From the NCBI RefSeq assembly GCF_000003815.2, contig NC_049995.1:17903075-17967074 (forward strand): a stretch of DNA of 64,000 nt, given 5' to 3'. Shown piece after piece: positions 1-62,015 of the stretch (positions within the stretch are counted from its first letter, which is position 1; every line of letters starts with the position of its first letter). Below the pieces are notes generated by a model. The model was not told the origin of the DNA and did no database searches. It saw only the letters and a program-made list of their open reading frames with translations. Source of the stretch: Branchiostoma floridae. Taxonomy: Eukaryota > Chordata > Leptocardii > Amphioxiformes > Branchiostomatidae. The position numbers and the translations under genes were made by a program.

Positions 1-75
1 CTGACCCTGATGTTTGTTTAGATGCTGTACGTGCCTGACCCTGATGTTTGTTTGTTTAGATGCTGTACGTGCCTG
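1..75 (+). repeat. Acceptor-boundary array, TLDc gene exon 1 of window
   Basis: About two visible copies of a 34-38 bp unit contain TTTGTTTAG plus the first exon bases ATGCTGTACGTGCCTGAC. The array continues off the left edge. The 3'-most copy joins the full exon at 60. Confidence 0.85.
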
Positions 76-3000
76 ACCCCGATGCCTGGACCGATGAGGA
101 AACGTCCGTGTCCAGCAGTCCTGCCTCCCCCCCACCCTCGCCTGCAAGCACAGAGATTCCTTCGAGGAGATTCGTAAGTTCTTAGATTCCCTTAGAGGAG
201 TTCCTGTGTTTGGGGAGAGCCACACCCAACACACATTAAAGAACCCACCGCACTTATTGAAAAGCGTAGGGGACCTTACCGATGTGATTGGATCAAACCA
301 ACAGACTGGTCTCCTTGTTGACATCTTTGAAAGGTGATAGTCACCTGTTTTGTCAATCCCTCCACAAATGTGGTAAATCTAAATATTAAATAAACAAGTT
401 TTTTTATTCCTTCCAGGAGATTTGTAAGTTTTCACTAGATTCCCTTAACAAGATCTCTTTTGCTATTCTTAGCATTCTTTTATTAACATTTTTTAGTCAA
501 TACCATGTTTATTTACAAATGTGTGTGTTCATGACACGTTTGTTGATTGACATTTTTAACTTGCCTCTTGTTTTTCCCAAGGATTTGCCAGTTGTACGGG
601 AAAAGGAACCCGCCGTAAGTTGCTCTCCTATGTAATCTTCAAGACTCAAAAGACCTGAAATTTTTCTTACACTGCTGAGTAGAAAAACAAAGAAACAATG
701 CTGCTAGTAAGAGAGCATTAATTTTTGGGACGGTAGACAAGAAGAGGCTAATAACAAAGAGAGCCTTAACAAATCAGCACTTGCAATTAGCCCTCGGGAA
801 AGAACTTGCGAAGAACTATTAAAGTACCCTATTAACGCATGTTTCCAACTTCAGTCGCAGGACCCAGGTCATGTGACCAGCCCCGCCCAGGTCGTGACCC
901 CCAGCAGCAGCAGGCAGTCGTCGCTGGACGAGCTCGGCAGCCAGAAGGAAGACGAGTTCCACGAGCAGTTCCTCAAGATCAACGTCAAGTACATCACAGC
1001 TGGCAAGGTGAGTTCCTCAAGATCAACGTCAAATACATCACAGCTGGCAAGGTAAGTTCCTCAAGATCAACGTCAAGTACATCACAGCTGGCAAGGTGAG
1101 TTCCTCAATATCAACGTCAAGTACATCACAGCTGGCAAGGTGAGTTCCTCAAGATCAACGTCAAATACATCACAGCTGGCAAGGTAAGTTCCTCAAGATC
1201 AATGTCAAGTACATCACAGCTGGCAAGGTCAGTACATCACAGCTGGCAAGGTCAGTACAGCACTCTGTATCTGTATCTGTATAGCCGGTATAACCGTCCT
1301 TCGGCGTAACACACCAGCACTGCTGGCAAGGTCAGACAAGGCCGAGTGTTCACAGCTGCCAGGGTAAATACGGCACTGCTAAAAAGGTCAGTCAAGGTCA
1401 GTACAGCATAGCTGGCAAGGTCAGTACAGCACTGCTGGCAAGGTCAGTACAGCACTGCTGGCAAGGTCAGTACAGCACTCTGGCAAGGTCGGTCAAAGTC
1501 AAGTACAGCACTGTTGGCAAGGTCAGTCAAATCAAGTACATTACTGCTGGCAAGGTCAGTCAATGACAAGCACATCAAGGACAGTTCTGAATATCCAAGT
1601 CAAGTCAATGTGAGACTATAATGAAGGATATGTCATCTCAGTTCCCAAAAGACTAGTCTTGTCTTGTTATGTTGCTTAGCTTATTAATTACCATTTCACT
1701 TTAATGCGATTATGGGAAAAATTACATTTATAGCTAATTCCATTATGTTCCTCTCGGCATCAATTTCATTTTCCTGCAAACTGCAATTACAGGAAAACTT
1801 GTGTGACCTTTTGTAGGGGTCGATTGCTAATCAAAATGCTGAGCGGCAATAATTAAATCTTCTTTTGATGAGTGGCTCTTCGAGGACACGGTCGGTGTTT
1901 GGGAGGCAAAATGTTTTCCCTCTGTGGCAAAATTGCCTGTATTTTTTTTTGCAGTTAAAATCCTGTGTGCACCTGTATATTACAAGTATATATATATATA
2001 TATATGATACACCAGATTGAGTAACTATTTTTGGCGTATGATACACCAGGATTTTAAGAATTGGAATTCAGAAATAAAATCAGGCCTTAGAGAAGACTTT
2101 CCTCTGTAAAACTGCAACTATATTGTAAAGTTTTTCCTGCAATTTGGTAAAAAAAGTATGCAAGTATTCGCCTAAGAGTTAGTTCGCTTCAGAAAATGTA
2201 CAGCAATAGCTTCAAAGTTGTACTTTATTTATTACTAGTCACACTTCTTTCAGCTTGAATAATACAGACTACGGTAACACCGAACGTGATTGTGTCCCAA
2301 ACGCACATTAAGTATCTCCTGGAAATCAAGTTTAGGGATGAGGAGTGGTTTTATTTATCTGTCGGATTGTGACTTATCGTGTTTCCGACCGTTTAAAGGC
2401 ATGTTAAGCGGCGTTCTCCTGGTCACACTGATTGCGATCGTGTTCAACCAGCACAAGTCAAATCTGCTGATCATAGAGAAGGGATGAGAAGAGTATGGAC
2501 ACAGATCTTATATCGTGTTTCCGACTGTTTCAGGGCACGGTAAGCGGCATTCTTCTGGTCACGCCGAACGCGATCATGTTCGACCCTCACAAGTCGGACC
2601 CGCTGGTCATCGAGTTTAGGGATGAGGACAGAGTGGTCTTCTATATATCTGTCGGATTCTGACCCTTCTTGTTTCTGACCATTTCAGAGCATGTTAAGCG
2701 GCATTCTGCTAGTTATGCCGAATGCAATCATTTTCGACTTGCACAAGTCTAAATCTACTGGTCATAGAGTTTAGGGATGAGGAGAGAGTGGCCTGATATG
2801 TCTGTCAGATTCTGACTCGTTGTGTTTCCGACCGTTTAAAGGCATGTTAAGCGGCATTCCAATCTACTGGTCATCGAGTTGAGTGATAAGAAATGTTTCG
2901 TCTATGTCTGTCAGATTATGACGCGTCTCGTTTCCGACCGTTTCAGGGCACGGTAAGCGGCGTGCTTCTGGTCACGCCGAACGCCATCATGTTCGACCCT

Positions 3001-6000
3001 CACAAGTCGGACCCGCTGGTGATCGAGACGGGATGCGAAGAGTACGGCCTCATCTGCCAGATGGACACGGTTCTGTCCGCAGCCATGTACCACGATATCA
3101 GGCCCATGATGGAACCACACAAAAGGTAGGACACACAATAAACAAACAAACAAACAACAGCCACCATGTACCACGATATCAGGCCCATGATGGAACCACA
3201 CAAAAGGTAGGACACACAGTAAACAAACATACAAACAAACAACAGCCACCATGTACCACGATATCAGGCCCATGATGGAACCACACAAAAGGTAGGACAC
3301 ACAGTAAACAAACAAACAAACAAACAAACAACAGCCACCATGTACCACGATATCAGGCCCATGATGGAACCACACAAAAGGTAGGACACACAGTAAACAA
3401 ACAAACAAACAAACAAACAAACAACAGCCACCATGTACCACGATATCAGGCACATGATGGAACCACACAAAAGGTAGGACACACAGTAAACAAACAAACA
3501 AACAAACAAACAACAGCCACCATGTACCACGATATCAGGCCCATGATGGAACCACATAAAAGGTACAATAAATGAATAAACAACAGTACCATTGTTCAGA
3601 TATTTATTACAAAATGTTTTGCCTTTTTGTGTAAGCTCAGTTCGTTTTGGAGTATGTGTCATTGTTGTTAAGTGGTTGGTTAAGTTACTTTGATAATTAG
3701 TTTGATTGATTGATTGTTTAATTGATTGATTGATTGATTGACCATTGCAGAGATGAGATTTACAAGTCAGGTGACTACAGCCAGGAGGAGACCGAACCAA
3801 CCAGCTCCTCCAGGAGCAGTTGCCACGGCAACGGCGGAGCCCCGTTGCCGGGACAGCGGTCGGAGAGTTTGGAGGACGAGGTTTTCGGCGGTGGCGGTGT
3901 TCCCAAACCCCCGGCGGGACCTGGCGTAGAGGTGGCACAACTGGTGGATTTGGGGGACACGATAGCGGATGGCGGGGGCGTGGTAGCGGACAGCGGTGGC
4001 ATTCTCGTGGCAGAGGGTTCGACGGAGGGTTCGATGGAGGATTCTAACGTGCCAAAGCCGCAGAAGTTCGTTGAGGAGCTGGTACCGATTATCGAGGAAA
4101 AAGTGGACCCAAACAGACTCAGCCCTCGCGTGCTCAGTCCTGATGCAGGGATCGATGAGGAAACGGACACAAAGGGCGCGGGAAAAGGACCACCGGACAC
4201 GGTCGCAGACCAGGTCAGGAAAAGCGGCTGTAGCGACGCCAGCGACACGGGGAGCGTAGAGAGCGGCATCGCGGAAATGGTGGACTCAGCGAACCAGAAG
4301 GATAGCGTCAGGCCGGACAACAACGGTGCAATTTCCGAGACGTCGTCGTCCGGGCAACCCGGGTTGCCGGGCGTCGACCCTGCCACAGACACGGCAACAG
4401 ACGGTGTTAACGTGCAAGAGAGTTTAAACTTTGTAGACTTTTCGTGCGGCCTGTTCACCACAGAGGCGAACAGGTCTGGCGTACAGGACATCTCGGAGGT
4501 GATTCCGCAGGACTCCAGCGTACAGGAGGAGATCGCACTCCTTAAAGACGCCTCCAAACTCTCGGAACCCTCGGAAGACTCGGAGCTGAGGATGACAGAG
4601 ACGGTGCGAGAGAGGCCGACATTCCTTCCCTCCTTAACGGGCTCCTTCGATGGTTGGTGGCTTTTATTTCTTATCTATATCCACCGCACTACAAAATACT
4701 GTAAATGCATGTAAGTTTGCGGGGATTTAATTTCGCGGTAGCGGGAAAAAGGACTTTTCGCGGTGGATTTAATTTTGCGGTAACACCATAGACTGCAGTC
4801 TTATATCATGATAGAAAAATATTCGCGGTGGATTTAATTTCGTGGTGAAGTGGTCACCGCGAAAACTGCGAACATTAGTCCACCGCGAACATTTCTGCAT
4901 TTACAGTATGCCTTTTCTTATTTTCCTTGAACACAGAATACTGATCTTTCAGCAAGAATATTATTCTGTATATACAAGAATCCCTGTTTAGTGTTTTGAG
5001 AAAATTCAAGAAACCCAAGGCATATTTTTCTTGTGCAAAGAATTTTTGGTTTGTGGTTTTCATTTCAAATATTTACGTCGTTCACTTTTATTAGTCTTTT
5101 CCTGCGAAGTAATACAGTTTCTTTTTTCCAGCTGATTTGCCAAATCTCATCCTCAAGCTGATTGGCAAAGACATTTCAGCTGCAAATTTAGTGCTAAAAG
5201 ATACATTTGTATCTCTGAATTTTTGCAAGAGTCCAATTCAATTAAGATTGAAAACTAGAGTTGATAAATTTTTTCCCAGCCCCAGTTAAATGACATTGAA
5301 TGACCCATGTTGTAATTTGGCTAACAACCCATAACCTGTCTGTACCACAGAGCTCCTGCAGACCCAACCCTAGTTGGAACACAATGACGCAAACTGTAAC
5401 CCATCTTATGACCCACGTTTTAAGTTTAACCCATCTCATCTATTGACCAACACAGTAAACCATCTAATGGCCCTGCCACTTTTAATTCATGTATCATTTT
5501 AAACCAACATTGTTCACCATCTAATGACCCATGTTGCAACCCATCTGGTGACCAATGCAGTTACCCATTTCTCTGCCCCACAAAGCTTGTCATCCCAGCC
5601 CCAGTTAGAACATTATGACCCATGCCCTTACTCATCTAATGACTAAATCCTGTATCCTATATAATGAGCAACATTGTAACCCATCTAATGACCCATAACC
5701 CATATCAACACCCATAATGACCCACGCTGTAACCCATTTCTTTGCCCCACAGAGCTGCTGCGGTCCCAGCCCCAGTTAGAACATTATGACCCATGCCCTT
5801 ACTCATCTAATGACCAAATCCTGTATCCAATATAATGAGCAACATTGTAACCCATCTAATGACCCACGTTTTAACCCATCTAATGTCCCATATTAACACC
5901 CATCTAGTGACCCACGCTGTAACTCGTCTCTGTCCCACAGAGCTTCTGCCGTCCCAGCCCGTTAGAACATTATGACCCACGCAGTAACCCGTCTCTCTGT

Positions 6001-9000
6001 CCCACAGAGCTGCTGCCGTCCCAGCCCGTTAGAACATTATGACCCACGCAGTAACCCGTCTCTCTGTCCCACAGAGCTGCTGCCGTCCCAGCCCGTTAGA
6101 ACATTATGACCCACGCAGTAACCCGTCTCTCTGTCCCACAGAGCTGCTGCCGTCCCAGCCCCAGTTAGAACATTATGACACACGCAGTAACCCGTCTCTC
6201 TGTCCCACAGACCTGCTGCCGTCCCAGCCCCAGTTAGAACATTATGACCCACGCAGTAACCCGTCTCTCTGTCCCACAGAGCTACTGCCGTCCCAGCCCC
6301 AGTTAGAACATTATGACCCACGCAGTAACCCGTCTCTCTGTCCCACAGAGCTGCTGCCGTCCCAGCCCCAGTTAGAACATTATGACACACGCAGTAACCC
6401 GTCTCTCTGTCCCACAGAGCTGCTGCCGTCCCAGCCCCAGTTAGAACATTATGACCCATGTTGTAATCCATCTTGCGACCCATGCTGTAACCCATCTCTC
6501 TGCCCACAGACCTGCTGCCGTCCCAGCCCCAGTTAGAACATTATGACCCATGCAGTAACCCGTCTCTCTGTCCCACAGAGCTGCTGCCGTCCCAGCCCCA
6601 GTTAGAACATTATGACCCACGCAGTAACCCGTCTCTCTGTCCCACAGAGCTGCTGCCGTCCCAGCCCCAGTTAGAACATTATGACCCACGCAGTAACTTG
6701 TCTCTGTCCCACAGAGCTGCTGCCGTCCCAGCCCCAGTTAGAACATTATGACCCATGCTGTAACCCATCTCTCTGCCCACAGACCTGCTGCCGTCCCAGC
6801 ACCAGTTAGAACATTATGACCCATGCAGTAACCCGTCTCTCTGTCCCACAGAGCTGCTGCCGTCCCAGCCCCAGTTAGAACATTATGACCCACGCAGTAA
6901 CTTGTCTCTGTCCCACAGAGCTGCTGCCGTCCCAGCCCCAGTTAGAACATTATGACACACGCAGTAACCCGTCTCTCTGTCCCACAGAGCTGCTGCCGTC
7001 CCAGCCCGTTAGAACATTATGACCCATGTTGTAATCCATCTAGCGACCCATGCTGTAACCCATCTCTCTGCCCACAGACCTGCTGCCGTCCCAGCCCCAG
7101 TTAGAACATTATGACCCATGCAGTAACCCGTCTCTCTGTCCCACAGAGCTGCTGCCGTCCCAGCCCCAGTTAGAACATTATGACCCACGCAGTAACCCGT
7201 CTCTCTGTCCCACAGAGCTGCTGCCGTCCCAGCCCCAGTTAGAACATTATGACCCACGCAGTAACTTGTCTCTGTCCCACAGAGCTGCTGCCGTCCCAGC
7301 CCCAGTTAGAACATTATGACCCACGCAGTAACTTGTCTCTGTCCCACAGAGCTGCTGCCGTCCCAGCCCCAGTTACAACATTATGTGACCCATGTTGTAT
7401 CCTATATAATGATTGTAACCCATCTAGTGACCCACACAGTAACCCATCTCTCTGCCCACAGAGCTGCTGCCGTCCCAGCCCCAGTTAGAACATTATGACC
7501 CACGCTGTAACTCGTCTCTGTCCCACAGAGCTGCTGCCGTCCCAGCCCCAGTTAGAACATTATGACCCATGTTGTAACCCATCTAGCGACCCACGCAGTA
7601 ACCCATCTCTCTGCCCACAGACCTGCTGCCGTCCCAGCCCCAGTCCCTCAGCTCGCCCCAAGGTCCTCCGCTCTTCCTGTGTCTCAAGGTCATGCAGATG
7701 AAGAAGTCCTTCACCGGCGGCAAGGAGGTCGTTAACCCAGGGAGCACCAAGTTGCCTGAATACTGGTTCGCCATCCCGAAGGACAGGTAAACTCCGGTGG
7801 GAGACACAATTTTGTCAACATTGGTGGGAGACACTGATTCAATGGCTGGGGTTGCAGAAACATCTGTTGGAGATATTCAGTATATTTTGGTTTGCCATCC
7901 TGAAGGACAGATAAACTCCAGTGGGAGACACAATTTTGTCAACCTTGGTGGGAGACACTGATCATTCACTTTGGTAGGAGGCAGTCAAACCTAAGAAGAC
8001 ATACAATGGTATGAGACACTGGTTAGAGTTGCAGAAACATTGATAGGAGATATTCAGTATATTTTGGTTTGCCATCCCAAAGGACAGGTAAACTCCGATA
8101 GGAGACACTGATACACTTCAGTAGGAGACAGTTCAACATTGGCATGAGACACTGGTTGGGGTGCAGAAACATTGGTAGGAGATATTGTGGTCACAAATGT
8201 ATTACCTAAAGCTTGTTAAAGCTGCTCAAATTGGTGTGAGACTGATAAACCTTGATGAGAGACGGTAAACAATGGCAGGGAAAATGTCATTTATGTACAG
8301 GACTCTCCTGACTGTTTGAATTAGAGTGATATTGCCAAAATATTGGGTTGTTAAGTTTCTGAAAACGTGGGTCTAAATCACAGTAAAGAACCATGGTCCA
8401 AACTAAAGCACTAGAGACTGCTCAGACAATGCTAAAAGTAAATGTAGCTAGAAAAGACTGTTTAGAGTCATATTGCCAAAACATTGGGTTGTTGAGGTTC
8501 TAGACGTTAGAGTCTAAATCACAGTTAAGCCCCGTTTACAAATCAAGAATTTAGTTGGCCGAGTTNNNNNNNNNNNNNNNNNNNNNNNNNNNNNNNNNNN
8601 NNNNNNNNNNNNNNNNNNNNNNNNNNNNNNNNNNNNNNNNNNNNNNNNNNNNNNNNNNNNNNNNNNNNNNNNNNNNNNNNNNNNNNNNNNNNNNNNNNNN
8701 NNNNNNNNNNNNNNNNNNNNNNNNNNNNNNNNNNNNNNNNNNNNNNNNNNNNNNNNNNNNNNNNNNNNNNNNNNNNNNNNNNNNNNNNNNNNNNNNNNNN
8801 NNNNNNNNNNNNNNNNNNNNNNNNNNNNNNNNNNNNNNNNNNNNNNNNNNNNNNNNNNNNNNNNNNNNNNNNNNNNNNNNNNNNNNNNNNNNNNNNNNNN
8901 NNNNNNNNNNNNNNNNNNNNNNNNNNNNNNNNNNNNNNNNNNNNNNNNNNNNNNNNNNNNNNNNNNNNNNNNNNNNNNNNNNNNNNNNNNNNNNNNNGCG

Positions 9001-12000
9001 AGTTGTCAGCGAACTCTAAAGTCACGAGGAGGCATGCCCCTGATTTTTTGGAGAAAACGGCAGAGTTTCTTCGTCGGCATCAGGGTCATACCTCCTCATA
9101 ATTTAGAGTTCGCTGACAACTCGGCCGAGCTAAATTCTTGATTTGTAAACGGGGCTTAAAGAACCATGGTCCAAACTAAAGCACTACGGACTGCTCAGAC
9201 TATGCTGCATGTAGCTAGAAAAGAGGATGTTTTCTTCCTTACCAGAGCCGACCACCTCTACGCGTTCTTCCTGCAATGGTCGCCGGACGTGTACGGCCAC
9301 GAGGTCAACAAGGCCGACCTGGAAGTGTCCGGTTTCGTCGTGCTCGGGGAGGAGACGGACTCGCTGGAGGTCGTCGACGACTTCTACTCATCAGAGTCAA
9401 GTCTGTACAAGGACTGGGAGGTCAGTTTGTTTGTTTGTTTGTTATTATGAAAAACAAGCTGTCGGGTTTCATGGTGCTCGGAGAGGAGGCGGACTTGCTA
9501 GAGGTCATCAATCATTGCTACTCCGAGGAATCGAGTCTGTACAAGGACTGGGAGGTCAGTTTGTTTGTTTGTTTGTTTGTTTTTATTTAATATGACTGAG
9601 AAGGGGTTCGTGGTGCTCGGCGAGGAGACCGACTCGCTGGAGGTCGTCGATGACTTCTACTCTTCAGAGTCGAGTCTGTACAAGGACTGGGAGGTCAGTT
9701 TGTTTGTTTGTTTGTTTGTTATTATTTATATGAAAAACAAGCTGTCGGGATTCGTGGTGCTCGGAGAGGAGGCAGACTTGCTAGAGGTCATCAATCATTT
9801 CTACTCCGAGGAATCGAGTCTGTACAAGGACTGGGAGGTCAGTTTGTTTGTCCGTTTGTTTGTTTGTTTTTATTTCATATGACTGAAAAGGGTTTTGTGG
9901 TGCTCGGCGAGGAAACAGACTCGCTGGAGGTCGTCGATGATTTCTACTCTTCTGAGTCGAGTCTGTACAAGGACTGGGAGGTCAGGGGTCACATTCTTGA
10001 TAAGAATGAAAAAAATGACATTTTTTTGCAGGTTGATTTCTCGTGTTATTTTGTTTGAAATGAAGATTGATTGCTCGAAGAAAATTATGATTGGAAACTA
10101 AAGTGAGCTGGGTTTTTCCTAACAGGTGTGTAAGGCTGGTTCTCCTACCTGAAAAATCGTGCCTTCCTAAATGAGAGGGGTTGGAAGTATATTTAATGTT
10201 ATGTCATATGCAGTTCTCGACTTTAGGTGCTATTTCACAACGACAATGATATTAGAAAAAGAAAATGTATCAAAGTTAACCAAACCAGATTTCCTTCTAA
10301 GAGATTCTGAGCATGATAGAGATTACAGCTGCCACACGTACAAGAATTTACAGTTTGTTTATTTTGTTGTTTACATCAGATCGTCACGGCGATGGAGGCC
10401 AGGCGTAGGTTGTCCATGCTGGAAGTTGAGGACAGTTTACCGCAGCCAACACTCCTGGGCAAGAGCAACCTACTGGACTCCAAACATGTCTCACTGGTAA
10501 GACTGAACTCTGAACTCCAACCCCTAACCTTCCTTAGCCAACACTCCTGAGCTAGACTCCAAACACGTCTCACTGGTAAGACTGAACTTTGAACTCCAAC
10601 CCCTAACCTTCCTTAGCCGACACTCCTGGGCAAGAACAACCTGCTGGACTCCAAACACGTCTCACTGGTAAGACTGAACTTTGAACTCCAACCCTTAACC
10701 TTCCTTAGCCGACACTCCTGGGCAAGAGCAACCTGCTGGACTCCAAACATGTCTCACTGGTAAGACATGTTCCCCCAGCTTGTCATTGACAGGTGTCATG
10801 TTCCCCAGCATGTGATTGACAGATGCCATGTTCCCCAGCGTGTGATTGACAGATGTCATGTTCCCCAGCATGTGATTGACAGATGCCATGTTCCCCAGCG
10901 TGTGATTGACAGATGTCATGTTCCCCAGCATGTGATTGACAGATGTCATGTTCCCCAGCTTGTGATTGACAGGTGTCATGTTTATAACTGTGTGTGATTG
11001 ACAGGTGTCATGTTCCCCCAGCTTGTGATTGACAGGTGTCATGTTCCCCAACGTGTGATTGACAGGTGTCATGTTCCCCCAGCTTGCCCAGTTCCTGCCC
11101 CCGAGGACCGAGGGTTACGCCTGGATGCTGATATACTCCACGTTTGAACACGGCATCAGTTATGACTGTGTGATTGACAGGTGTCATGTTTATGACTGTG
11201 TGTGATTGACATGTGATTGACAGGTGTCATGTTCCCCCAGCTTGCCCAGTTCCTGCCCCCGAGGACCGAGGGTTACGCCTGGATGCTGATATACTCCACG
11301 TTTGAACACGGCATCAGCCTCACCACCATGTACAAGAAGATGGTCGGAGTGGACTCACCTGTGCTGCTCGTGGTGCAAGACTCGGAAAATAACGTAAGTC
11401 ACAAGAATGGATGAAGGGATGGAGGGATTTGATGGGTGAATGGAGGGAGGGAGGGAGGGAGGGAGGGAGGGAGGGAGGGGTGAATGATTGAATGGATTAT
11501 GAGTGGACTGTTGGATGAATGAATGAGAATGAATTGGTGGATGGATGGATTTGTGGATGGATGGATGGGTGGATGGATTGATAGTTGTATGGATGAGTAT
11601 ATTTAATGAGTGGATGGATGAGTGAATGAATGAGTGAATGGATGAATGCACTTTGAAATTTGTATCAGATTCTAATCGAAATTATATGATATTGATTGAA
11701 ACCTGTCTATCCTCAGGTGTTCGGAGCTCTGACGTCCAGTCCAGTTAAGATCAGCGAGCATTTCTACGGCACAGGAGAATCTTTCCTTTTCACCTTCTTC
11801 CAAGACTTCAAGGTAAGTGTAGGAAGTGTAGTAATTGTCTTAAGTTGGACTTGACATTTCATTATTAGGAGGTCTGTTGGACTGTAGATTAAGTGTTGGG
11901 TTAATCTTATGTATGTTTTATGATTTTGAGGTTGCCCCCAAACCATGTCTGATGTGAAATTCTGCGTAAAATACCGGTATGGCGTGCAAAACTCTGCAAA

Positions 12001-44532: not shown

Positions 44533-44645
44533 GGTGGTCCTGCTGTTATACCCAAACTCTCTAGGGGGAGTTGCTGCGCAGCGAGTACCGACACTCAGCC
44601 ATGGTGGTGCTGCTGTTATACCCAAACTCTCTAGGGGGAGCTGCT
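44500..44645 (-). repeat. Tandem duplication over the start codon of the zinc-finger gene
   Basis: Two 72-bp copies (about 44506-44577 and 44578-44645) each contain 5' UTR, ATGGCTGAGTGTCGGTACTC and CGCTGCGCAGC. Only the downstream copy (ATG at 44532) continues into the full first coding exon; the upstream ATG lies at about 44604. Confidence 0.88.
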
Positions 44646-44840
44646 GTACAGGACAGTTTCAGTCAGGACGATGGTCAGGTATGGTTTTCCTGGGGAGAAA
44701 CAGTACATACCATAACTAACGTAAGTGCATTATAGTTCGGAGTCCACATGTGCAGCGACAGGAATTGTGGGTAACATGTCAAAGGTGACGGCTCCTGAGA
44801 CATAAACAATTGCAAGTCTGGACATTGTTATGCATGTGGA

Positions 44841-50500: not shown

Positions 50501-53500
50501 GCCAGGCCTCCGTCCGGGTGATTTTTAGTGAATCACCAACTCCAGACAGAATGGTTTGCTCCATCGCACACCACACCATCGCACGTGTGGGGGTTCTTTA
50601 ACAATATTTTTATGAAAAGATAAATAAAAGACATTTTTGTTTCACCCACAGTCATGGAGAGACCCCTAACGAAGAACAGACGTCAGCATTTGTGAACCTC
50701 TGTGCCAACTGGACAGCCAGGAACCCCACAGATCTCATAGGTAAGGCTTCCTTCTTAAATAACTTATAAGGAAGAAGTTGTTACATGTTTGATACATTTG
50801 GGGCTGCATTCTTCACACTGTAACAGCGATACCTAGCTGCAGTTTGGAGTACTGCATCAGGGACACCCATAGCTACAGTGCAATGTTATTAGTTATTGGG
50901 TGGGCCGACTACTCTCTTTTTGCAGCCAGGGGCTGAATTGCGAGAAGCTTATAATAGGCAGGGCTAAATCGCAAGTGTCTGGAGCGAGCTGCCATTCGGC
51001 GCCACTCAGGTGACCTCAATACGACAGTAATTGCCCCAGGTGCGGGCATGGGACTGTAGGTTTTGAACCATTCAGACTGGGAAGGACCCCTACTTTTTGA
51101 GATAAGTGTGGTGGGTTCTTTAATGTGCTCAAGGTGTAACCACTCAAGTGAACGAGTCCATCCTAGTGCAAGAGCACCTTTACCTGTTTAAGTCTAACCC
51201 TTTGTTCTCACCTGCCACAGGTGTTCACTGCACCCACGGGTTCAACCGGACAGGTTTCCTCATCGTGGCTTACCTGGTGGAGAAACACTCTTGGAGGTGA
51301 GGTCATAGCTTTCTGTGTACCGCCGCTGGTAAAGTCACTTATTTCGGTGTACTTTCAATTGACTGGTGACATCACTGATTTCTGTACACTTACATTGGTG
51401 ACACCTCTTGTGTCTGTGCACTGCTGCTGGTGACATCACTAATTTCTGTGCACAAATATCACAGTGTCAAATCAACTATTCAGGCCTTTAGAGTTGATAA
51501 CTGTTTACTTCTGCTAATTACATCACTGATTGTTGTGCACTTCTGCATGTGACATCACTGATCTGTGCACACACATTGCAGTGTCGAGGCAGCTGTCCAG
51601 GCCTTCACTGTCGCTCGGCCCCCTGGGATGTATAAAGGTCACTACCTGGAGGAGCTGTTCCGTCGCTATGGCGATGCAGACGATGCCCCGCCCGCCCCGC
51701 CGCTCCCTGATTGGTGCACGGAGTCTGATGACTTGGACGATGATGGAAACCCGACCCAGCAGCCATCCAATGGGATGAAAGGTCAAAGGGCAGGGGGCAC
51801 GACCTATAAGGTAACTGTGCTGATAGATGAAGTCTTTCTTCTTATATTTTGTTCCTTTTTTGAGCTAGTTACAATATGGCACACTGTGTAAACATTTAGG
51901 CTGGTCAAATGTTATTTACATTGTGTCAAGTTCTTCCTATAATTGTAAGACTTGTACTAAATTTTCAGCATGATTGGAAATTCAACAAGCAAATATCTGC
52001 CATAATTTCTGTTGACAACAGCTTCATTTAAACAAAATAAAAAATGTTGCTAGACTAAGTATAGGATCAAATCTTTGGTGTTGATAATAAATGTTAGCTT
52101 GTCTAGTATTTGTTTTGCTTTCTCTGTATTTGCAGGTTTGTATGAAAGATAATTTTGATAGTAAATGATATTGTTTCATTATAGCTCTTATGTTAACACT
52201 GATTACATTTTGTATAATATTACGAATGTTGGTAACTTTTAAAGTTAGTTTTTCTGTCCCCCAGCCCTTTATGGACGGGCTGGTACCCGGAGTGGACACC
52301 GTCACGGACCAGCCGCGGCTACGCAACGTGCAGCAAAAAGTACAGCACATGTGTGGCTGGCACAAGTGAGTACTGTTTCTGTGCTACTGTTGTACTGTTT
52401 CTGTACTACTGTTCTCTTTATTTGCACGCTGTTGCAATTTTGCCTACTGACAGTAGTTGTATGCTTTTCTATTCTACACAGTTTCAGCGACTGAATAGTG
52501 TCAGATTAGATTTTCCTCCCACCCTTCTGTTGTCATTTTGCCATTGAAATTTCTTACCTATATGTTGGTACCTCGGATGATACGAAGCACACTGTGTTGT
52601 ACATTCATTCTGTTGATTCTGTCGATTGAGGCAGACTTTCTCAGGTGCCCAGCCAGTCCCCATGTGTGTTCTACATGTTTTCTGTCCTGACATGTGTGTT
52701 CTACATGACTGTGTTCTGTCCTACAGACAGGGTTTCGCAGGCATCCAGCCGGTCTCCATGTGTGTTCTGTGTGTGTTCTTGTTCTTGTTCTGTACTGATG
52801 TGTGTTCTACGTGTGTTCTGTCCTGCAGAAATGGTTTCCCGGGTGCCCAGCCTGTCTCCATGTGTGTGTTCTGTACTTACATGTGTTCTACATGTGTTCT
52901 GTACTGACATGTGTTCTACATGTGTTCTGTCCTACAGACAGGGTTTCCCGGGTGCCCAGCCCGTCTCCATGGACAGGAAGAACCTGAGTTTTCTGGCACA
53001 GAAGCCGTACAAGGTCAGCTGGAAGGCCGACGGTGTCAGGTAAGGTCACCTAACACATGTCTGTTCTGTAAATTTGTCATTTTTGCAGTGGTCTCGTTTT
53101 GCTCAAGGGGGAAAAAGACTCTGTGATTTCTTTGCATTATTATTTTTTATTCCAATTTGGGGTTGAAACAAGTCTACAGTGCAAGGGGTGATGAGACAAT
53201 GAGACAATACAGTGTTCCATCCCCCCAGATCTCTTGGTTGTCCATTGTAATAGAACCTTGATTGTTGTTCTCAAAAGGCCAGCCTCAGAACTGCCCCCCT
53301 GTAGAAAGAGTCTGACAGACACTAACGTACCCCCCTGTACCCCCCCCCCCCCAGGTTGATGTTGTTAATAGACGGCCCCCAGCAGGTTTACCTAGTAGAC
53401 AGAGACAACACAGTGTTCCACCCCCCCCTGGAAGTACCCACCGGAAGTACCCCACTGAAGTACCCCCCTGTACACTAATGTACCCCCTGTATCCCCCAGG

Positions 53501-56500
53501 TTGATGTTGTTAATGGACAGCACCCAGCAGGTGTATCTAGTAGACAGAGACAACACCGTGTTCCCTTCCACCCCCCCCCCCCGGGGAGTACCCCCAGCCC
53601 TGTACACTAATGTACCCCCCTGTCTCCCCCCCCCAGGTTGATGTTATTGATAGACGGTGCCCAGCAGGTATATCTAGTAGACAGAGACAACACAGTGTTC
53701 CACCCCCCCCTCCTGAAGTACCCCCCTGTAGACAGACACTAATGTACCCCCCCTGTACCACCCCCCCTACAGGTTGATGTTGCTAGTAGATGGCCCCCAG
53801 CAGGTGTACCTGGTAGACAGAGACAACACAGTGTTCCATGCGCCCCAGCTCACCTTTCCCCGCAGAAAGGAACCGGACAAGCAGATCTGTAACACACTAC
53901 TGGACGGGGTAGGTGCATGATTTCTGGAATTTGTAAGAACTTGATGTAAATGCACTGCATAAGACTATTGACAATGTATGTAGTACCTGTATCTCTAAGT
54001 GTTGCAGTCCTTAGGATTAGAAATCAAGCTATTGGCCACTGTTGCAAGAATCTGACACACATATACTAACAACAGTGCTAATACACTGTTATAGTGAGCA
54101 CCTGTCTACTATGGCCATTTTCATAAAGTTACTGGTTTCCAGTGACTATAGTGCAGGTTAGTAAATCTGTGATCTACTGCTAGTTTTACTGAAAATCACA
54201 GTTTTCTAACTGTGCACAGCTGACTGTAATTGTTTTCTCCTCATGAACTAGAATAGATGGACATTTCACAGTTGATGAGGTTCTTATTAGAATAAATTAG
54301 CATTTATTTTTCCCATGTGAGAATCCTGGATTTGTGAAAAAAAATTTCAAACTCGCACAGAAGATTTTTTTCTCTTAATTTCCCAGGAGATGATAATAGA
54401 CAAGGTGGCTGGGAAGGACCGGCCGAGATACCTGGCCTATGACATCATCAAGTTTGAGGTGAAGTACTGATTCAGTTTTGTTGTGGAGTGTATACGTAGA
54501 GAGATTTCGTGGTTGGTGACTCGGAACCTGAGTTCAAATCTGTGACAGGTCTGATGTTTTGCACTTGCTTCTGTTTCCATGATTCGAGTTCTAGCCAGCA
54601 AAATTTTCCATACTACCTGGTCCCTTTTTTCTTAACAACAATACTAACAGTGCAACAATCATCCCCACCCCAGGGGCAGCCCGTGGGGGAGTGCGATTTC
54701 TCGCGGCGGCTCCTGTGCATCAGGAAGGAGATTGAGGAAACGCGGGACAGCCAGGCGCAGGCCGGCGCGCTCGACAAGTCCCGCGAACCCTTCAGCGTGC
54801 GCCACAAACCCTTCTGGGACATCACCATGTCTCCTAAGGTCAGGTCATAGGTCAGAAATTGTCACAAAAGGTCAGCTCATAGGGCACAAACTCTGACATA
54901 AGCAGACTTGCAACAATTGGAGCAAAGTGTGATTGGTAGTTGGAAGTAAAAAAAAATTGTTTCACTAGACTAAGTTGGTATATGATTACACATCCTCAAG
55001 ACATGCCATTTACCACACTCATCATCATTATGGCCCCACTACTTAACTTGCTAAATGACACACCAAAGCTAAGGAGGTTATAACCAATGCCAGATAACAG
55101 TTACTCAAGCAACGGTCAGACATTTCAAGTAGCACCCACACCATTGTACCTTTGTCTGTGACTCTGTCAGTGAAACATCTGACCATTTCCAAAATCATAT
55201 CCAGTTGCTTAAGTAACCTTCATCAATGCAATGCTATACCTTTAACTGCACCACAGTGCTGAAACACGGTCTTGCATGGGTGTGAGATTTGATCAAGTGA
55301 TGCCCACCCCCACCCCCCAACACCCCTGCTTCTAGATGATAAGTTTCCATAATCTCAATGTGTGCTCCGGAAACACGTTTTTCTGATCATTTACCTGCAC
55401 CACTTAACTGTTAACCCATGGTAACAAGGTTGTAGAGAGACATGTATAAGTTCAAATCATGGCCCCCTCCCCCCAGCTCCTGGTAACACAGGGTACATGT
55501 ATACAAACGTGTACAAATTTTTTATGACATCTACCACCACCCCTGCAGCTCCTGGATGGCAGTTTCTCCTCACAGGTTAGCCATGAGGTCGACGGGCTCA
55601 TCTTCCAGCCAGCAGGACCCAAGGATGTGAGTCTGGCTTCCTTCTGGTTCTTAAGACATGAAGAGTTTATCCTTAAAATGACATCTTCTGGGCTCTAGCT
55701 TTTCTAGGGATGTTTTACACCATGTACATTTTCAGTTACTAGGATGTAGGTCTGGGTTCCTTCTGATTCTAAATATGTGGTTCTTCATAAGATTATCATT
55801 AAGATGACCTTCTGGGCTCTAGCTTTTTATAGGGATGTTGTAAACCATGTACATTTTCAGTAAGAAAATTAGAACAGACAATTTGGATATCGAAAAAGTA
55901 CACACTGCCTTACCTGGTAGACCTTAACTCATCGACAAAGAGCATTTTTTAAGGTCTTTAACATTTAGGAAGTGTATTGTGCAGTGATTGCTTTTACTTG
56001 TTTGAAGAAGAAGATAGACAGACCAAAGACAATATCTTTACCTTCCATGAAGGCTAACATGATAAAAAGTTCAGTAGTGATCAGGCTTTTAGCTAGGATT
56101 TTATCATTGGGAGTCCAAATTTATTCGTGAGTTGTGGTGACTGTCTATTGTAGGGGGGTCTGGGGGCATCCACCCTCCATCGTGCAGAGTTTTTGATGAT
56201 TTTAAGTTAACATGGTGCATTCTAAGCATCCTAAGAGGCAAAAATACTGAATTTCATGCTTGTCAGAGGATTTTCTCCCCAGTATAAGGGTGTCCAGTGC
56301 GTCAAATTTTTTGTTATTCTAAGAAAAGAGTGTCTAGATGACGCCTTGACGCATGCCTGGCTAAAAGCCTGGTAGTGATTTATGCCTGTCTGTGGTGCCT
56401 GTGCAGAAATATGTGGGAGGGCGGTGTGACGACATCCTGAAGTGGAAGCCTCCAACGTTAAACACGGTCGACTTCAAACTGCAGATCAGAAGGGAAGGTG

Positions 56501-59415
56501 GAGAGGGGTGAGTAACAACGTTGGTCAGGATTTTTAAAAAAAATATATTTTACCAGCTGAGGGGTGACATGTCACCTCATTTTGGCGCTTTTTAATATGC
56601 CCTGGGGGTAACCCCAGACATACATGTACATCACATATCAAATATAATAAAAAGTAACATAACGATTGTGTTTGTACTGAAGGCAGCTGTGCCAGTTAAG
56701 ACTCAAAAGCCACACAATATTAAGTTAAGGGTTTTCTCTGAAACCTAACACTAAGACAGGACTGTACTCAGATAAGGATGGACCCCTATTTTTAGATCTT
56801 TTGGGATCTTAAATGTTCTCAAAGTGTTCATGTCTTCAAATATGGGACCTCCGGTCTATTGCAGTGGATGGCCCTAGCCAAATCGTAAATCACCTGAGGA
56901 CATAATGTGCACAGTACAGGGCTCTAGCCAGCGTCCGTCTTTCCGTCAATTGAAGGAAATTTGCTGCGTGTGACGGAAAATTTTTAAACCAATCCGTCAA
57001 CCTTGATGGACAAAAATTCTTGGTGGAAGCTACAGGCGGCTTGGGGACACTGTCGGAAAGCCACACACTGTTTGTTTTGCTATTGTTATGATTGTTGACT
57101 TGGTGTGTCGGCGCCGTTTCGCATACGATAATCTCATTAAAAACCTGTTTTTCAAGGTCTCAGTTTCGTCTTTCTAACTTAATTTTCGCGGTTTTCGTGA
57201 CAATGGCAATTGGCTGACGGAAAACATTTTCGAGCTGGCTAGAGCCCTGGCACATTACTAAGATTCTGATCTGAATTTGTGTATACAGTCAAACCTGCCC
57301 AAGACGACCACCCGGGGACCGGAAAAAAGCGGTCGATTTGGACAGGTGGTCGCTGAGAAGAGTATCGACTCAAAACATGCCCGATGGAAAGTATAAATGG
57401 TTTCCATTGTGCTTAATGGCATAAAGCAAGCACACTGCACGCACGCAAAGAAGCGAGGTCTTTAATCTCAAATACAACAGGCACACTGTAAACTGTAAAT
57501 TTAACCCCAAAATCCGACGCAAACTGGCCGATTTCGGCACAAAATCGTGCTAGTTATCATCAAAAATCGATGAAAACCTCAATTTTGAAAATGATGCGGT
57601 CGTTATGGGTCCCAATTTGGGCCGGTCGCGGTCGCGTTGGCCAGGTGGTCGTTGAGAAAAGGTTGCTTAATGCTTACGTCAATGGGAAAATAAATCGGGA
57701 CCGAGAAATAGTGGTCGAAATGGCCAGGTGGTCGCTGAGAGGAGGTGGTCGTTCGGGCAGGTTTGACTGTATAAGGGGACTCAAAGCAACTGCTTCATCT
57801 CTTGTTGTTCTCCTTTTTCAGAATGTTGGTGCAAACGAAAGGGTTTTTATACGTCGGAGGTTTTGAACAACCGATCGCTCAAATGAAGGTGAGTGCAAAA
57901 ATAGGTTTATGCACAAAATTTTATTCCTCGCAGCCGGTGATGTTGAACACCATTAAGATCCTCTTGGTGTTCTGAACAAAGTTCAACATACGGTAATTTC
58001 TAACACAACAAATTATTATACCCAAATTTTCGACTGATCATCACCATTCTTTGTCAAAGAATGGACAATCCCCTGCTTCTGTGGCATCATGTTATGTAGA
58101 TAGAACACATGACTCAGTGAGCAGTGGATCATAAGTTGCAGGAAGTCTATGGCACCCTCCGTCTCTGTATAGGGATGGTTGTAAAGATCTGGTGTAGCTA
58201 GTTTTTTTGATACCCTCTTTTTGTGTTTGTTTAGCTGTAAATTCCTTAGGCCTGTAGTTTTCAAAATGATAATATATGAATCCATTTGAAAGTGAAGCAT
58301 CTGTTTTTCTCTTGTTGCAGGTGACCAAAGATCTGAAGAAATACGATGGTAAGATCGTGGAGTGCAAGTTTGACGGGGCGACAAAACAGTGGCTGTTTCT
58401 CCGTGAGAGAACGGACAAGAGCTTCCCTAACTCCTACACAACTGCTGTCGGTGGGTGCTTCTCTCTAATACTTTATTAACTATATGGTAGAACCCAGGCT
58501 GCTTTCTACAAATTTGGTATGCTCTCTGGTAACTATTTTTGGGTTCATCAGGTAACTATTTCTGCCGTATGGGTTCATCAGGTTAACTATTTCTGCAGTA
58601 TGGGTTCATCAGGTATCTATTTCTGCAGTATGGGTTCATCAGGTATCTATTTCTGCAGTATGGGTTCATCAGGTAACTATTTCTGCAGTATGGGTTCATC
58701 AGGCAACTATTTCTGCAGTATGGGTTCATCGGGTAACTATTTCTGCAGTATGGGTTCATCAGGTAACTATTTCTGCAGTATGGGTTCATCAGGTTACTAT
58801 TTCTGCAGTATGGGTTCATCAGGTAACTTTTTCTGCAGTATGGGTTCATCAGGTTACTTCTGCAGTATGGGTTCATCAGGTTACTTCTGCAGTATGGGTT
58901 CATCAGGTAACTATTTCTGCAGTATGGGTTCATCAGGTAACTATTTCTGCAGTATGGGTTCATCAGGTTTACTATATTACTATTATGCGAACAGAGCCTG
59001 TAACCAGGGATATCTGATAAGTGAACAGTACTGTATGTTTGTAACCATGGAGATCTGTTCTGTTTCCCTCCCAGCTGTGTTTGAGAGCATACAGAACCCC
59101 GTAACCATGGAGATCTGTTCTGTTTCCCTCCCAGCTGTGTTTGAGAGCATACAGAACCCCGTAACCATGGAGATCTGTTCTGTTTCCCTCCCAGCTGTGT
59201 TTGAGAGCATCCAGAACCCCGTTACCAAGGAGATCCTGTTCGAGTTCATCACGAGATCGAGGTACCAGCAGCACCCTCCCCCGGGATCAATGCACCCTCC
59301 CCCTGGCTCCTCACACCCTCCCCAGTCATCGCTGGACAGTCCCCGCGGCCAGAAGAGACCACTGTCACAAGGAGACCACTTAATGCCGCCACCAGAGAAG
59401 ATGCCAAAAAGATAA
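47565..59415 (+). CDS. RNGTT: mRNA capping enzyme (RNA triphosphatase and guanylyltransferase)
   Basis: Sixteen exons with consistent phases: 47565-47619, 48514-48623, 49759-49865, 50652-50740, 51221-51296, 51582-51810, 52265-52365, 52938-53039, 53773-53908, 54387-54458, 54674-54838, 55549-55626, 56407-56507, 57822-57888, 58321-58450, 59195-59415 (stop TAA), 612 residues versus about 597 in human. The N-terminal cysteine-phosphatase-type RNA 5'-triphosphatase has the loop [10 protein letters not shown] with nucleophile C124 and R130. The C-terminal guanylyltransferase has motif I KADG with the GMP-accepting lysine at K285 (SWKADGVR; human reads KADGTR), motif III DGEMII across exons 9/10, motif IV DGLIFQP, motif V LKWKPP and motif [10 protein letters not shown]. 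The enzyme removes the gamma-phosphate and adds GMP to nascent Pol II transcripts in the nucleus. All catalytic residues are present. Five boundaries (exons 2, 3, 8, 9, 16) carry tandem arrays. Exon 16 has three in-frame candidate acceptors; the shortest form is taken here because it matches the family. Confidence 0.96.
48013..48378 (+). mobile_element. 366-bp MITE, Harbinger-like
   Basis: Ends GGCCACACCAATTTAATTTC / its near complement GAAATTAAATTGGTGTGGCC (inverted repeat about 35 bp), flanked by AAA and TAA. An inverted copy of the same length is at 60620-60985. Lies in RNGTT intron 1. Confidence 0.78.
48580..48785 (+). repeat. Donor-boundary duplication, RNGTT exon 2
   Basis: The last about 55 nt of exon 2 with its donor (AACGGCATGGGG then GTGAGA) recur at 48728-48783 with GTGAGG. 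Two copies about 157 bp apart. Confidence 0.9.
49040..49795 (+). repeat. Acceptor-boundary array, RNGTT exon 3
   Basis: Eight copies of about 80 bp contain CCCACAG, exon start GCTAAGATGGGTCTGGTTAT plus TGACCTG, then AT-rich GTTAGTTAATAAG units that are themselves tandemly repeated. Real exon start is 49759. Confidence 0.93.
50287..50600. repeat. Simple repeat plus unclassified interspersed repeat
   Basis: A (CATT)n tract at 50316-50334 precedes GC-richer sequence (TCAGCCGTAGGGGCAGCACA ... CGTGTGGGGGTTCTTTAA). The terminal GGGGGTTCTTTAA also occurs around 51110-51125 as GTGGGTTCTTTAA. Possibly a SINE-like repeat; not proven. Confidence 0.4.
51340..51582 (+). repeat. Degenerate intronic array before RNGTT exon 6
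   Basis: Loose copies of GTGACATCACTGATTTCTGT plus GCAC fill intron 5 (about 51366, 51432, 51522, 51550), the last leading into the exon 6 acceptor. No exon sequence is included. Confidence 0.55.
52625..52975 (+). repeat. Acceptor-boundary array, RNGTT exon 8
   Basis: Four copies at about 52632, 52731, 52830 and 52938 (real) contain CAG, the exon start ACAGGGTTTCCCGGGTGCCC plus AGCCCGTCTCCATG, and TGTGTTCT-rich intronic spacers. The period is about 100 bp. Confidence 0.93.
53340..53840 (+). repeat. Acceptor-boundary array, RNGTT exon 9
   Basis: Four copies with AG acceptors before 53354, 53501, 53637 and 53773 (real) share GTTGATGTTGTTAATAGACG through AACACAGTGTTCCA. They are separated by poly-C/TACCCCCCTG spacers. 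About 65 exon nt per copy stay open in frame. Confidence 0.94.
56917..57249 (+). mobile_element. hAT-like MITE, 333 bp
   Basis: Same family; target duplication GCACAGTA / GCACATTA (one mismatch). Lies in RNGTT intron 13, immediately upstream of the mariner-like element at 57286. Confidence 0.86.
57286..57769. mobile_element. Mariner-like MITE, 484 bp
   Basis: Ends CAGTCAAACCTGCCC / GGGCAGGTTTGACTG, flanked by TA, with internal GGTCG...CAGGTGGTCG inverted motifs. One end of a relative occurs at about 23602-23630. Confidence 0.78.
58525..58978 (+). repeat. 30-bp minisatellite in RNGTT intron 15
   Basis: About 15 copies of a 30-bp unit (TTCTGCAGTATGGGTTCATC plus AGGTAACTAT) occur, a few shortened to 24 bp. 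It contains a good CAG acceptor-like motif but no known exon sequence, and it is open in frames on both strands because the period is a multiple of three. Confidence 0.93.
59036..59225 (+). repeat. Acceptor-boundary array, RNGTT last exon (60-bp period)
   Basis: Three copies have acceptors before 59075, 59135 and 59195, each reading CCCTCCCAG then CTGTGTTTGAGAGCAT. The unit is exactly 60 bp, so each upstream acceptor would add 20 codons in frame. Confidence 0.95.
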
Positions 59416-60985: not shown

Positions 60986-61000
60986 TAAAGAAAAGTTGTG

Positions 61001-61051
61001 AATAAATGTACAATACAGACAGTCAGCATTGTGTTCAGTAGTCATTTTATT
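61001..61051. promoter_or_regulatory. Facing polyadenylation signals of RNGTT and the PTCHD-like gene
   Basis: AATAAA on the plus strand (61001-61006) and AATAAA on the minus strand (61046-61051) face each other 40 bp apart between the convergent genes. If both are used, the 3' UTRs would just overlap. Confidence 0.4.
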
Positions 61052-61597
61052 ACAAAAGTCATAAACAGATGAAGGTTGTTTCATTCTTTTTTATCTCCAT
61101 GACTCCTTTTGATTTGTAGATAGTGGTGATCATGTTACAAATGTAGCTTTATAAAAGGTTTGGTCGGGATGCTTCTTGCACCTCTCTAAAGATAGCACAT
61201 GTGGAAGAATTTTTCCACTTTTCAGTGAAAAGCAGAAGTATCTAATAGTATCGATTTTATTGTTTAAAAATGCATGTTAAGGTCCAGCAATTTCAAGTCG
61301 TTTTAATAAGTCAATCTAATTGCTTAAAGTGTATGGAAATAGGGCCAGTCCAAGCTCTCACAGTCGTTAATTTTGGGGATCCACCAATTGAAGGACAAAA
61401 CAACATCTAGCTACAGTTTTGGAATCTTAGCATCAAGATGTTCTTTTCTGCTTGTACACAAACCGTGAGTGGGGATAATGGGCGGTGCTGACAACCCTTA
61501 ATTACTTAAGATGTATTTTTGGTCAGCGTTAAGCTAGCAACCCTCAATTAGAGGTCCTTTTTAATTTGATTTGACTAACTATGCTGGACAGTTTAGA

Positions 61598-62015
61598 ATA
61601 GACAGAAGCTCCACCGCTCAGACCGCCGACACTTGGTACGGTCCGGACGACGTCTCCTTATTTGGTGTGCTGGCGGCTGAGTCCGTGAGCTCCACCCCTC
61701 AGACTGCCGACACTTGGTACGGTCCGGACGACGTTTCCTTATTTGGCGTGCTGGCGGCTGAGTCCGTGAGCTCCACCCCTCAGACTGCCGACACTTGGTA
61801 CGGTCCGGACGACGTTTCCTTATTTGGCGTGCTGGCGGCTGAGTCCGTGAGCTCCACCCCTCAGACTGCCGACACTTGGTACGGTCCGGACGACGTCTCC
61901 TTATTTGGCGTGCTGGCTGTTGAGTCTATAAGCTCCACCCCTCAGACTGCCGACACTTGGTACGGTCCGGACGACGTTTCCTTATTTGGCGTGCTGGCTG
62001 TTGAGTCTGTGATCT
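61598..62015 (-). repeat. 81-bp array spanning the stop codon of the PTCHD-like gene
   Basis: Five copies of an 81-bp unit have TGA stops (minus strand) beginning at 61944, 61863, 61782, 61701 and 61620. Each encodes DSxASTPNKETSSGPYQVSA then V and TGA. Units differ by only a few substitutions. Confidence 0.96.

What the first reader, a model, noticed from the sequence alone, without database searches (positions are those of the whole stretch)
1..62015. Systematic tandem amplification of exon boundaries in all six genes
At least 20 splice junctions, one start codon and one stop codon carry tandem arrays whose unit straddles the boundary. A strict polarity holds wherever it can be judged: in acceptor arrays the complete exon follows the last copy, in donor arrays it precedes the first copy. 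Copies keep AG or GT far better than neighbouring intronic positions. 'Mirage minisatellites' are known from amphioxus (Adh locus). This density across six consecutive unrelated genes suggests a genome-wide process, for example repair or replication slippage anchored at transcribed exon edges. Whether the copies keep weak splice function is open.
Basis: partly seen in the sequence, partly recalled or inferred. Interest (0 to 1): 0.9.

Follow-up and report, generated by a model that had tools for sequence, protein, structure and literature searches.

The report
Duplicated exon ends in amphioxus
In this stretch of an amphioxus-like genome about a fifth of the exon ends are repeated several times over next to the gene's own exons, a known oddity of these animals that is unusually crowded here, and the spare copies, few of which could simply be read into the protein, still vary in the pattern expected of protein-coding sequence.

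Summary
The arrays are real. I count 19 splice junctions, one start and one stop codon with local copies, out of 110 ends of 55 known or predicted exons in six genes. They fit "mirage minisatellites", published for amphioxus Adh, troponin C, globins and PGBD5. The "strict polarity" is plain geometry: any tandem duplication across a boundary leaves the whole exon beside the outermost copy. The genome-wide claim at this density fails: outside the window 5 of 277 predicted exon ends have a local copy (4.6-6.3 expected), inside it 27 of 119 (Fisher 4e-11). A second test leaves room for a modest genome-wide excess (4 of 19 arrays with units of 40 bp or more, 1.25 expected; one doubtful). Unexpectedly, exon parts of the spare copies vary like coding DNA: 88 synonymous, 74 nonsynonymous variants among copies (28.5% synonymous expected if neutral, P=6e-12); non-degenerate to four-fold ratio 0.29 (bootstrap 0.20-0.41). 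Only 3 of 91 copies with intact AG/GT would keep an open frame if used as the splice site, so direct translation is an unlikely cause. I infer that copies keep exchanging sequence with the functional end, so selection on that end reaches them. No RNA, long-read or population data could be used.

The parts
967..1233 (+). Donor array, unit 44 bp, 6 copies; true donor after 1007 (exon 861-1007, OXR1/NCOA7-like gene)
   Evidence: TRF; exon; sequence
2400..2946 (+). Degenerate acceptor array, unit about 154 bp, upstream of the true acceptor at 2946/2947 (GRAM-like exon)
   Evidence: TRF 2513-2859; extended by hand on the sequence; 4 copies, 2 keep AG
3083..3565 (+). Donor array, unit about 89 bp, true donor after 3125
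   Evidence: 5 copies, 5 keep GT
5549..7644 (+). Acceptor array, unit 69 bp, about 25 copies; true acceptor 7620/7621
   Evidence: 24 of 25 copies keep AG
9334..9986 (+). Donor array, unit 139 bp in two alternating sub-types; true donor after 9420
10476..10766 (+). Donor array, unit 79-92 bp; true donor after 10496
10766..11240 (+). Acceptor array, unit 30 bp plus one larger partial copy (11066-11180); true acceptor about 11240 (TLDc exon)
   Evidence: Pfam TLD in this region
12397..12872 (+). Donor array, unit 82 bp; true donor after 12420 (TLDc exon)
   Evidence: TRF 12492-12850 and 12708-12872, extended by hand to the donor
13139..14241 (+). Acceptor array, unit 72 bp, 15 copies; true acceptor 14208/14209 (last TLDc exon)
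22288..22384 (+). Donor array, unit 31 bp; true donor after 22300 (RNase PH family gene)
   Evidence: Pfam RNase_PH E=3.7e-16
29974..30226 (+). Acceptor array, unit 90 bp, running into an assembly gap (UPF0193 gene)
   Evidence: Pfam UPF0193
36050..36962 (-). Acceptor array, unit 157 bp; true acceptor 36136 (C2H2 zinc-finger gene)
   Evidence: 8 captured copies, 8 keep AG
37463..37499 (-). Single separate copy of the donor end at 37641/37642 (zinc-finger gene)
38411..38754 (-). Acceptor array, unit 113 bp; true acceptor 38464
39448..39865 (-). Donor array, unit 142 bp; true donor 39762/39763
44504..44647 (-). Start-codon array, unit 70 bp, 2 copies, each with the ATG
49093..49758 (+). Acceptor array, unit 81 bp; true acceptor 49758/49759 (RNGTT exon 3)
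   Evidence: 7 of 7 copies keep AG
52665..52971 (+). Acceptor array, unit 109 bp; true acceptor 52937/52938 (RNGTT)
53466..53838 (+). Acceptor array, unit 137 bp; true acceptor 53772/53773 (RNGTT)
59041..59241 (+). Acceptor array, unit 60 bp; true acceptor 59194/59195 (last RNGTT exon)
61607..62017 (-). Stop-codon array, unit 81 bp, 5 copies, 4 of them downstream of the stop codon
   Evidence: copy-copy variants by codon position 1/1/6

Best explanation
These are mirage minisatellites. A stretch of some 30-160 bp that straddles an exon edge is duplicated in tandem and grows into an array. The array is tolerated because the copy joined to the rest of the exon still gives the normal message. Shown: the arrays, the geometry, the local crowding in this window, and coding-type variation in the exon parts of the copies. 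Inferred: the copies keep exchanging sequence with the functional exon end (unequal crossing over or gene conversion). A copy with an amino-acid change can therefore become the functional end and be removed by selection, so untranslated copies also come under purifying selection. A very large breeding population would make even weak selection of this kind effective. Why arrays crowd into this window is not explained.
For: Arrays. RNGTT model confirmed against solved capping-enzyme sequences, E=3.1e-240. Elsewhere 5 of 277 ends carry a copy, 4.6-6.3 expected. Coding-type variation in 19 arrays (18 window + L010): copy-to-copy variants at codon positions 1/2/3 = 42/30/90, 88 synonymous and 74 not, P=6e-12; random reading frames never reached 90 in 100,000 draws; at third positions 3 transversions in 153 two-fold columns, 27 in 153 four-fold columns, P=3e-6; non-degenerate to four-fold ratio 0.29, bootstrap over arrays 0.20-0.41. 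Against direct translation: of 91 copies with intact AG/GT in 18 arrays, 3 would keep an open frame if used as the splice site; ratio 0.31 where the unit is not a multiple of three, 0.23 where it is; copies downstream of two stop codons vary the same way, 7 of 9 variants at third positions. Effective population size about 1.7 million, synonymous diversity 0.0397, and gene conversion at heterozygous sites orders of magnitude commoner than mutation in B. floridae (PMC12862219, abstract and passages).
Against: Exchange between copies and the functional end was not observed. Copies nearer the true end are not clearly more like it: nine arrays tested, rho -0.06 to 0.80, six positive at 0.2 or more, one with p<0.05. 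Four-fold sites vary more than intron columns (0.415 against 0.214 per column), which simple neutrality at both does not predict. Seven of the nine exon-part indels are not multiples of three, so some copies are broken. The stop-codon control rests on 9 variants. Frames are inferred from homology and coding statistics, not RNA. Copies within an array are not independent. The 0.59 yardstick for neutral copies is my own estimate.
Confidence: 0.5

Rival explanations
1. The copies are, or were until recently, translated: used as alternative exon ends or cassette exons, so selection acts on them directly.
For: Variation is filtered by codon meaning. Most copies keep AG or GT, 91 of 99. Exon parts have fewer indels per base than intron parts, 9 in 4051 against 52 in 2993, though intron parts include simple repeats. 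The 9420 donor copies and most of the 36136 acceptor copies read as intact coding segments by eye. Cassette use was not tested.
Against: 3 of 91 copies with intact AG/GT would keep an open frame as an alternative splice site. The signal is as strong where the unit is not a multiple of three (ratio 0.31) as where it is (0.23), and it appears in copies downstream of stop codons. The globin paper says that its RT-PCR and the Adh3 data suggest normal splicing (PMC3087553, passages).
Confidence: 0.2
2. Copies are neutral, and the array merely samples the history of the functional exon: each copy was born from it at a different time or from a different allele.
For: Needs no selection on copies. Mirage copy number differs between haplotypes of globin gene Gb6 (PMC3087553).
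Against: By my own estimate, neutral copies born from a constrained exon give a non-degenerate to four-fold ratio of about 0.59 or more; the bootstrap reached that in 0.01% of draws. Third-position divergence from the true end reaches at least 20% (36136: 47 of at most 232 cells) and 31% (9420: 37 of at most 120 cells), far above the synonymous diversity of 0.0397 (PMC12862219).
Confidence: 0.2
3. A genome-wide process tied to transcribed exon edges makes arrays at splice sites.
For: In the window 18 of 20 arrays with units of 40 bp or more lie at exon ends, 3.5 expected. Random sample: 4 of 19, 1.25 expected, P=0.038 (P=0.13 if the doubtful L007 case is dropped).
Against: The 60-mer case-control test finds no excess outside the window: 5 of 277 against 4.6-6.3 expected per unit, 13.6-17.9 per base. 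Sliding arrays: 4 ends seen, 8.85 expected. An excess could also arise because arrays holding conserved exon sequence stay recognisable longer.
Confidence: 0.15
4. The arrays are largely assembly artefacts of a highly heterozygous genome.
For: L053 holds an apparently identical exon block on both sides of a gap, probably an artefact. Copy numbers at PGBD5 differ between two assemblies (PMC3902484).
Against: In the array sequences that I printed (covering 20 of the 21 listed parts at least in part) I saw a gap only at 30227, and copies within the arrays differ. The PGBD5 authors report that re-examined Sanger and new Illumina data confirmed the sequence.
Confidence: 0.05

Closest known systems
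Mirage minisatellites of amphioxus (Adh3, TnC, globins Gb6 and Gb9, PGBD5)
   Same: Tandem copies of exon-intron boundaries, units of tens to about 160 bp, copies often with AG/GT, true end beside the rest of the exon
   Different: The reports I saw concern single genes or one family; here 21 exon ends in six genes within 64 kb, including a start and a stop codon, with a test of how the copies vary
Intron gain by tandem duplication of AG/GT proto-splice sites (Rogers model, cited in PMC3087553)
   Same: Tandem duplication that carries splice signals
   Different: Existing boundaries are multiplied; no new intron was shown here
Concerted evolution of tandem repeats
   Same: Homogenised sub-groups of copies, proposed exchange among copies
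   Different: One member is a functional exon end under selection; the copies carry a coding-type imprint

Membership tests
Mirage minisatellites of amphioxus | Tandem array whose unit spans an exon-intron boundary | tested here: met
   19 splice junctions
Mirage minisatellites of amphioxus | Occurs in a cephalochordate | tested here: inconclusive
Species inferred from size, from the phenomenon and from recall
Mirage minisatellites of amphioxus | Copy number varies between alleles or somatically | not testable with these tools
   No second haplotype found for 49700-54500; that search was swamped by a dispersed repeat
Mirage minisatellites of amphioxus | Normal splicing despite the copies | not testable with these tools
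   No RNA data; reported for Adh and globins
Genome-wide splice-site-anchored amplification | More arrays at junctions than in neighbouring introns, genome-wide | tested here: inconclusive
   5 of 277 against 4.6-6.3 expected; 4 of 19 arrays against 1.25 expected; window-like density not seen in the sample
Genome-wide splice-site-anchored amplification | A directional process, shown by polarity | tested here: not met
   By reasoning, not by a call: polarity follows from any tandem duplication across a boundary, so it cannot show direction
Translated alternative exon copies | Coding constraint limited to copies whose use keeps the reading frame | tested here: not met
   Ratio 0.31 for unit length not a multiple of three, 0.23 for multiples; 3 of 91 copies usable in frame as an alternative site. 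Cassette use not tested

The most novel reading that the evidence does not exclude
Untranslated tandem copies of exon ends are held under purifying selection on amino-acid sequence because they keep recombining into the functional exon end. In a population of millions this indirect selection is strong enough to give a nonsynonymous to synonymous rate ratio of about 0.3 in sequence that is never translated.
Probability: 0.35. Interest if true: 0.78.

Novelty: new member of a known kind. Interest (0 to 1): 0.55.

Why it matters
Mirages have been reported gene by gene in amphioxus. This gives a small estimate of how common they are (about 2% of exon ends in a sample, about 20% in this window) and finds that the copies carry a coding imprint. 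If that imprint comes from exchange with the functional end, it is a natural case of selection reaching DNA that is never translated, and it can be tested with pedigree and population data. It also warns that coding statistics can call false exons inside such arrays.

Tried and rejected
Whole-array sliding as the only null: not used alone, because arrays grow from one unit; unit-level tests were added. Third-position excess as a CpG effect: the excess remains in columns outside CpG-type context, 30/19/56 variants in 238/236/257 columns. Base composition: expected rates from intron mutability are nearly equal at the three codon positions. One array driving the signal: ratio 0.25-0.34 in five leave-out sets. 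Crowding near chromosome ends: no clear trend in 20 random pieces, rho -0.30, p=0.20. Second haplotype for allele lengths: nothing found, the query held a dispersed repeat. Protein kinase search: 129 matches, mostly long frames, none used. Pfam scan of 1-9900 plus strand: nothing over cut-off. Pfam scans at the right end of the window gave no family; the Patched-like name there is recalled. The Monte Carlo part failed and was rerun; the codon counts were superseded. One search placed one acceptor 3 bases off (11237); one search repeats it at 11240 and is the one cited.

Rows dropped before counts: of 47 DEAD-box matches seven were not fetched (C1:28787336, C7:14754719, C2:29693646, C12:21941779, C5:11768339, C10:11936592, C137:91331: long single frames or apparent duplicates); of 142 myosin matches seven, in five loci, were fetched. 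L061 (copy of L030) was left out and L053 out. Predicted exons lying wholly inside arrays were dropped. In one search the ends of two exons (L010, L018) were corrected by hand; L007 is doubtful and L024 is a stop codon, both counted. L052 shows a diverged copy of its exon end that the 60-mer test does not count. At score 10 the exon finder keeps 13 of the 15 known exons tested.

Full report
What is there. The window lies at G000:C17:17903075-17967074 in a 513-Mb assembly of 431 contigs, which by size and content I take to be an amphioxus close to Branchiostoma floridae (inference and recall). I see six genes: one with LysM, GRAM-like and TLDc parts (OXR1/NCOA7-like; LysM lies in the left flank L067; TLD; GRAM and the gene names by recall), one of the RNase PH family, one UPF0193 gene, a C2H2 zinc-finger gene on the minus strand, the mRNA capping enzyme RNGTT (17-exon model; best match a solved mRNA-capping enzyme chain, E=3.1e-240) and, by recall only, a Patched-like gene on the minus strand.

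The arrays. TRF gives 121 rows, 39 merged arrays of period 15 or more, 20.6% of known bases, against 4.9% in 20 random 10-kb pieces (198,190 known bases). I count 19 splice junctions, one start and one stop codon with local copies among 110 ends of the 55 exons listed; some of those exons rest on prediction alone. Three of the 19 are weaker (2946, 11240, 37641).

Polarity. In a tandem duplication of a segment that spans an intron-exon edge, the copy next to the rest of the exon is the last one for an acceptor and the first one for a donor. This holds for every such duplication and says nothing about mechanism (reasoning, no call).

Is it genome-wide? I wrote a simple exon finder (acceptor + codon statistics + donor). 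It found 15 of 15 known window exons at score 6 or more, one with a shifted donor, 13 at score 10 or more; RNGTT exons had been in its codon training. In second-order Markov shuffles of the random sample it gave no exon at score 10 or more, 3 at 8 or more. Random sample: 65 exons. Anchored loci (DEAD-box and myosin): 80 exons. By sliding whole arrays, 4 ends outside the window lie in arrays, 8.85 expected; for the window 21, 25.5 expected; arrays touching an end in the window 18, 13.6 expected, P=0.057. A 60-mer case-control test gives 5 of 277 ends outside the window; expected 4.6-6.3 if each copy set counts once, 13.6-17.9 by base. In the window 27 of 119; expected 5.8-7.3 per unit, 23.1-26.4 by base. 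Window against elsewhere: Fisher 4e-11. The 27 include a few false exons inside or antisense to arrays (rows). Placing single units of 40 bp or more at random: window 18 of 20 hand-listed arrays at exon ends, 3.5 expected; random sample 4 of 19, 1.25 expected, P=0.038, or 0.13 without the doubtful L007. So mirages occur elsewhere (L010 donor, L018 acceptor, L024 stop codon, L035 donor), at about 2% of ends, with no or a modest excess over chance, and this window is a hot spot. The window was picked because it looked striking, so its own P values are inflated. In the 8-kb left flank one of three predicted exons has an acceptor array (LysM exon).

Splice signals in the copies. Both letters of AG or GT are intact in 91 of 99 copies of 18 arrays, against 0.865 for neighbouring intron pairs; 11 arrays better, 3 worse, 4 equal, P=0.057 (one search had one junction misplaced). 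By column, 3 variants in 30 AG/GT columns against 106 in 496 intron columns, P=0.17. Slight at best. Unit lengths of 18 boundary arrays modulo three (0, 1, 2): 6, 7, 5. Of the 91 copies with intact AG or GT, 3 would keep an open frame if used as the splice site with everything between included.

Coding-type variation. In 19 arrays (18 in the window, plus L010 with 2 of its 3 copies captured) the exon parts of the spare copies differ from the true end at 5.0, 3.6 and 16.1% of codon positions 1, 2 and 3; intron parts 7.5%. Copy against copy, leaving out the true end: 42/30/90 variants, 88 synonymous, 74 not, neutral synonymous share 0.285, P=6e-12. A random-frame control never reached the observed count in 100,000 draws; position 3 is the strict maximum in 11 of 15 arrays with variants. 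At third positions transversions are 3 in 153 two-fold columns and 27 in 153 four-fold columns. The non-degenerate to four-fold ratio is 0.29, 0.23 for units that are multiples of three and 0.31 for others; bootstrap 0.20-0.41. Copies downstream of two stop codons: 7 of 9 variants at third positions. Exon parts have 9 indels in 4051 bases, 7 of them not multiples of three; intron parts 52 in 2993, though intron parts include simple repeats.

Reading. Codon meaning has filtered this variation. Direct translation as an alternative exon end would break or close the frame for 88 of 91 copies and could not act behind a stop codon; cassette use was not tested. Neutral copies born from a constrained exon should give a ratio of about 0.59 or more by my estimate. 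Continued exchange with the functional end fits: a copy that changes the protein is exposed when it becomes the end. Ne of about 1.7 million and frequent gene conversion in B. floridae (PMC12862219: abstract and passages) would make weak selection effective. Exchange itself was not observed, distance from the true end predicts similarity only weakly, and four-fold sites vary more than intron columns, which I cannot explain.

Literature seen. PMC3087553 (abstract and passages): mirages in Gb6 and Gb9, earlier in Adh3 and other loci, length differences between haplotypes, concerted evolution within clusters, proposed intron gain. PMC3902484 (passages): PGBD5, and mentions of Adh and TnC. PMC12862219 as above. 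PMC2206037 (passages): tandem repeat elements noted in the huntingtin scaffolds. A PubMed id that I recalled for the Adh paper was not held. Ten searches of open papers (listings of up to 10 titles each, long lists not read through) showed me no genome-wide survey of mirages and no test of coding constraint in their copies; most papers of subscription journals are not covered.

Noticed in passing
window 45070-45907; also about 1268-1325, and L052: A 56-bp unit with 15 copies at 45070 recurs as single relatives inside the 967-1620 donor region and in another gene's intron (L052): a dispersed minisatellite-like repeat (by eye).
   Followed up: partly
window 50315-50602: Dispersed repeat of about 288 bp with at least 39 further copies at 88-96% identity; only 40 of 4500 candidates were scored.
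   Followed up: no
L053 520-1450: Apparently identical block with an exon on both sides of an assembly gap, probably an unmerged overlap rather than a real duplication.
   Followed up: partly
L024 7820-8032: Stop-codon array in what looks like the last exon of an ABC transporter (name recalled; Pfam gave nothing for the joined exons).
   Followed up: yes
L010 6702-7060: Donor array whose unit holds only about 5 intron bases (GTAAG) and 85 exon bases; exon has a weak match to the NBR1 Ig-like domain, below the curated cut-off; ILRUN-like by recall.
   Followed up: partly
G000:C1:28787336 and C7:14754719; C2:29693646 and C12:21941779: Pairs of DEAD-box matches in long open frames with identical scores on different contigs.
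   Followed up: no
window 9334-9986: Copies fall into two alternating protein sub-types, suggesting duplication of a two-unit block.
   Followed up: partly
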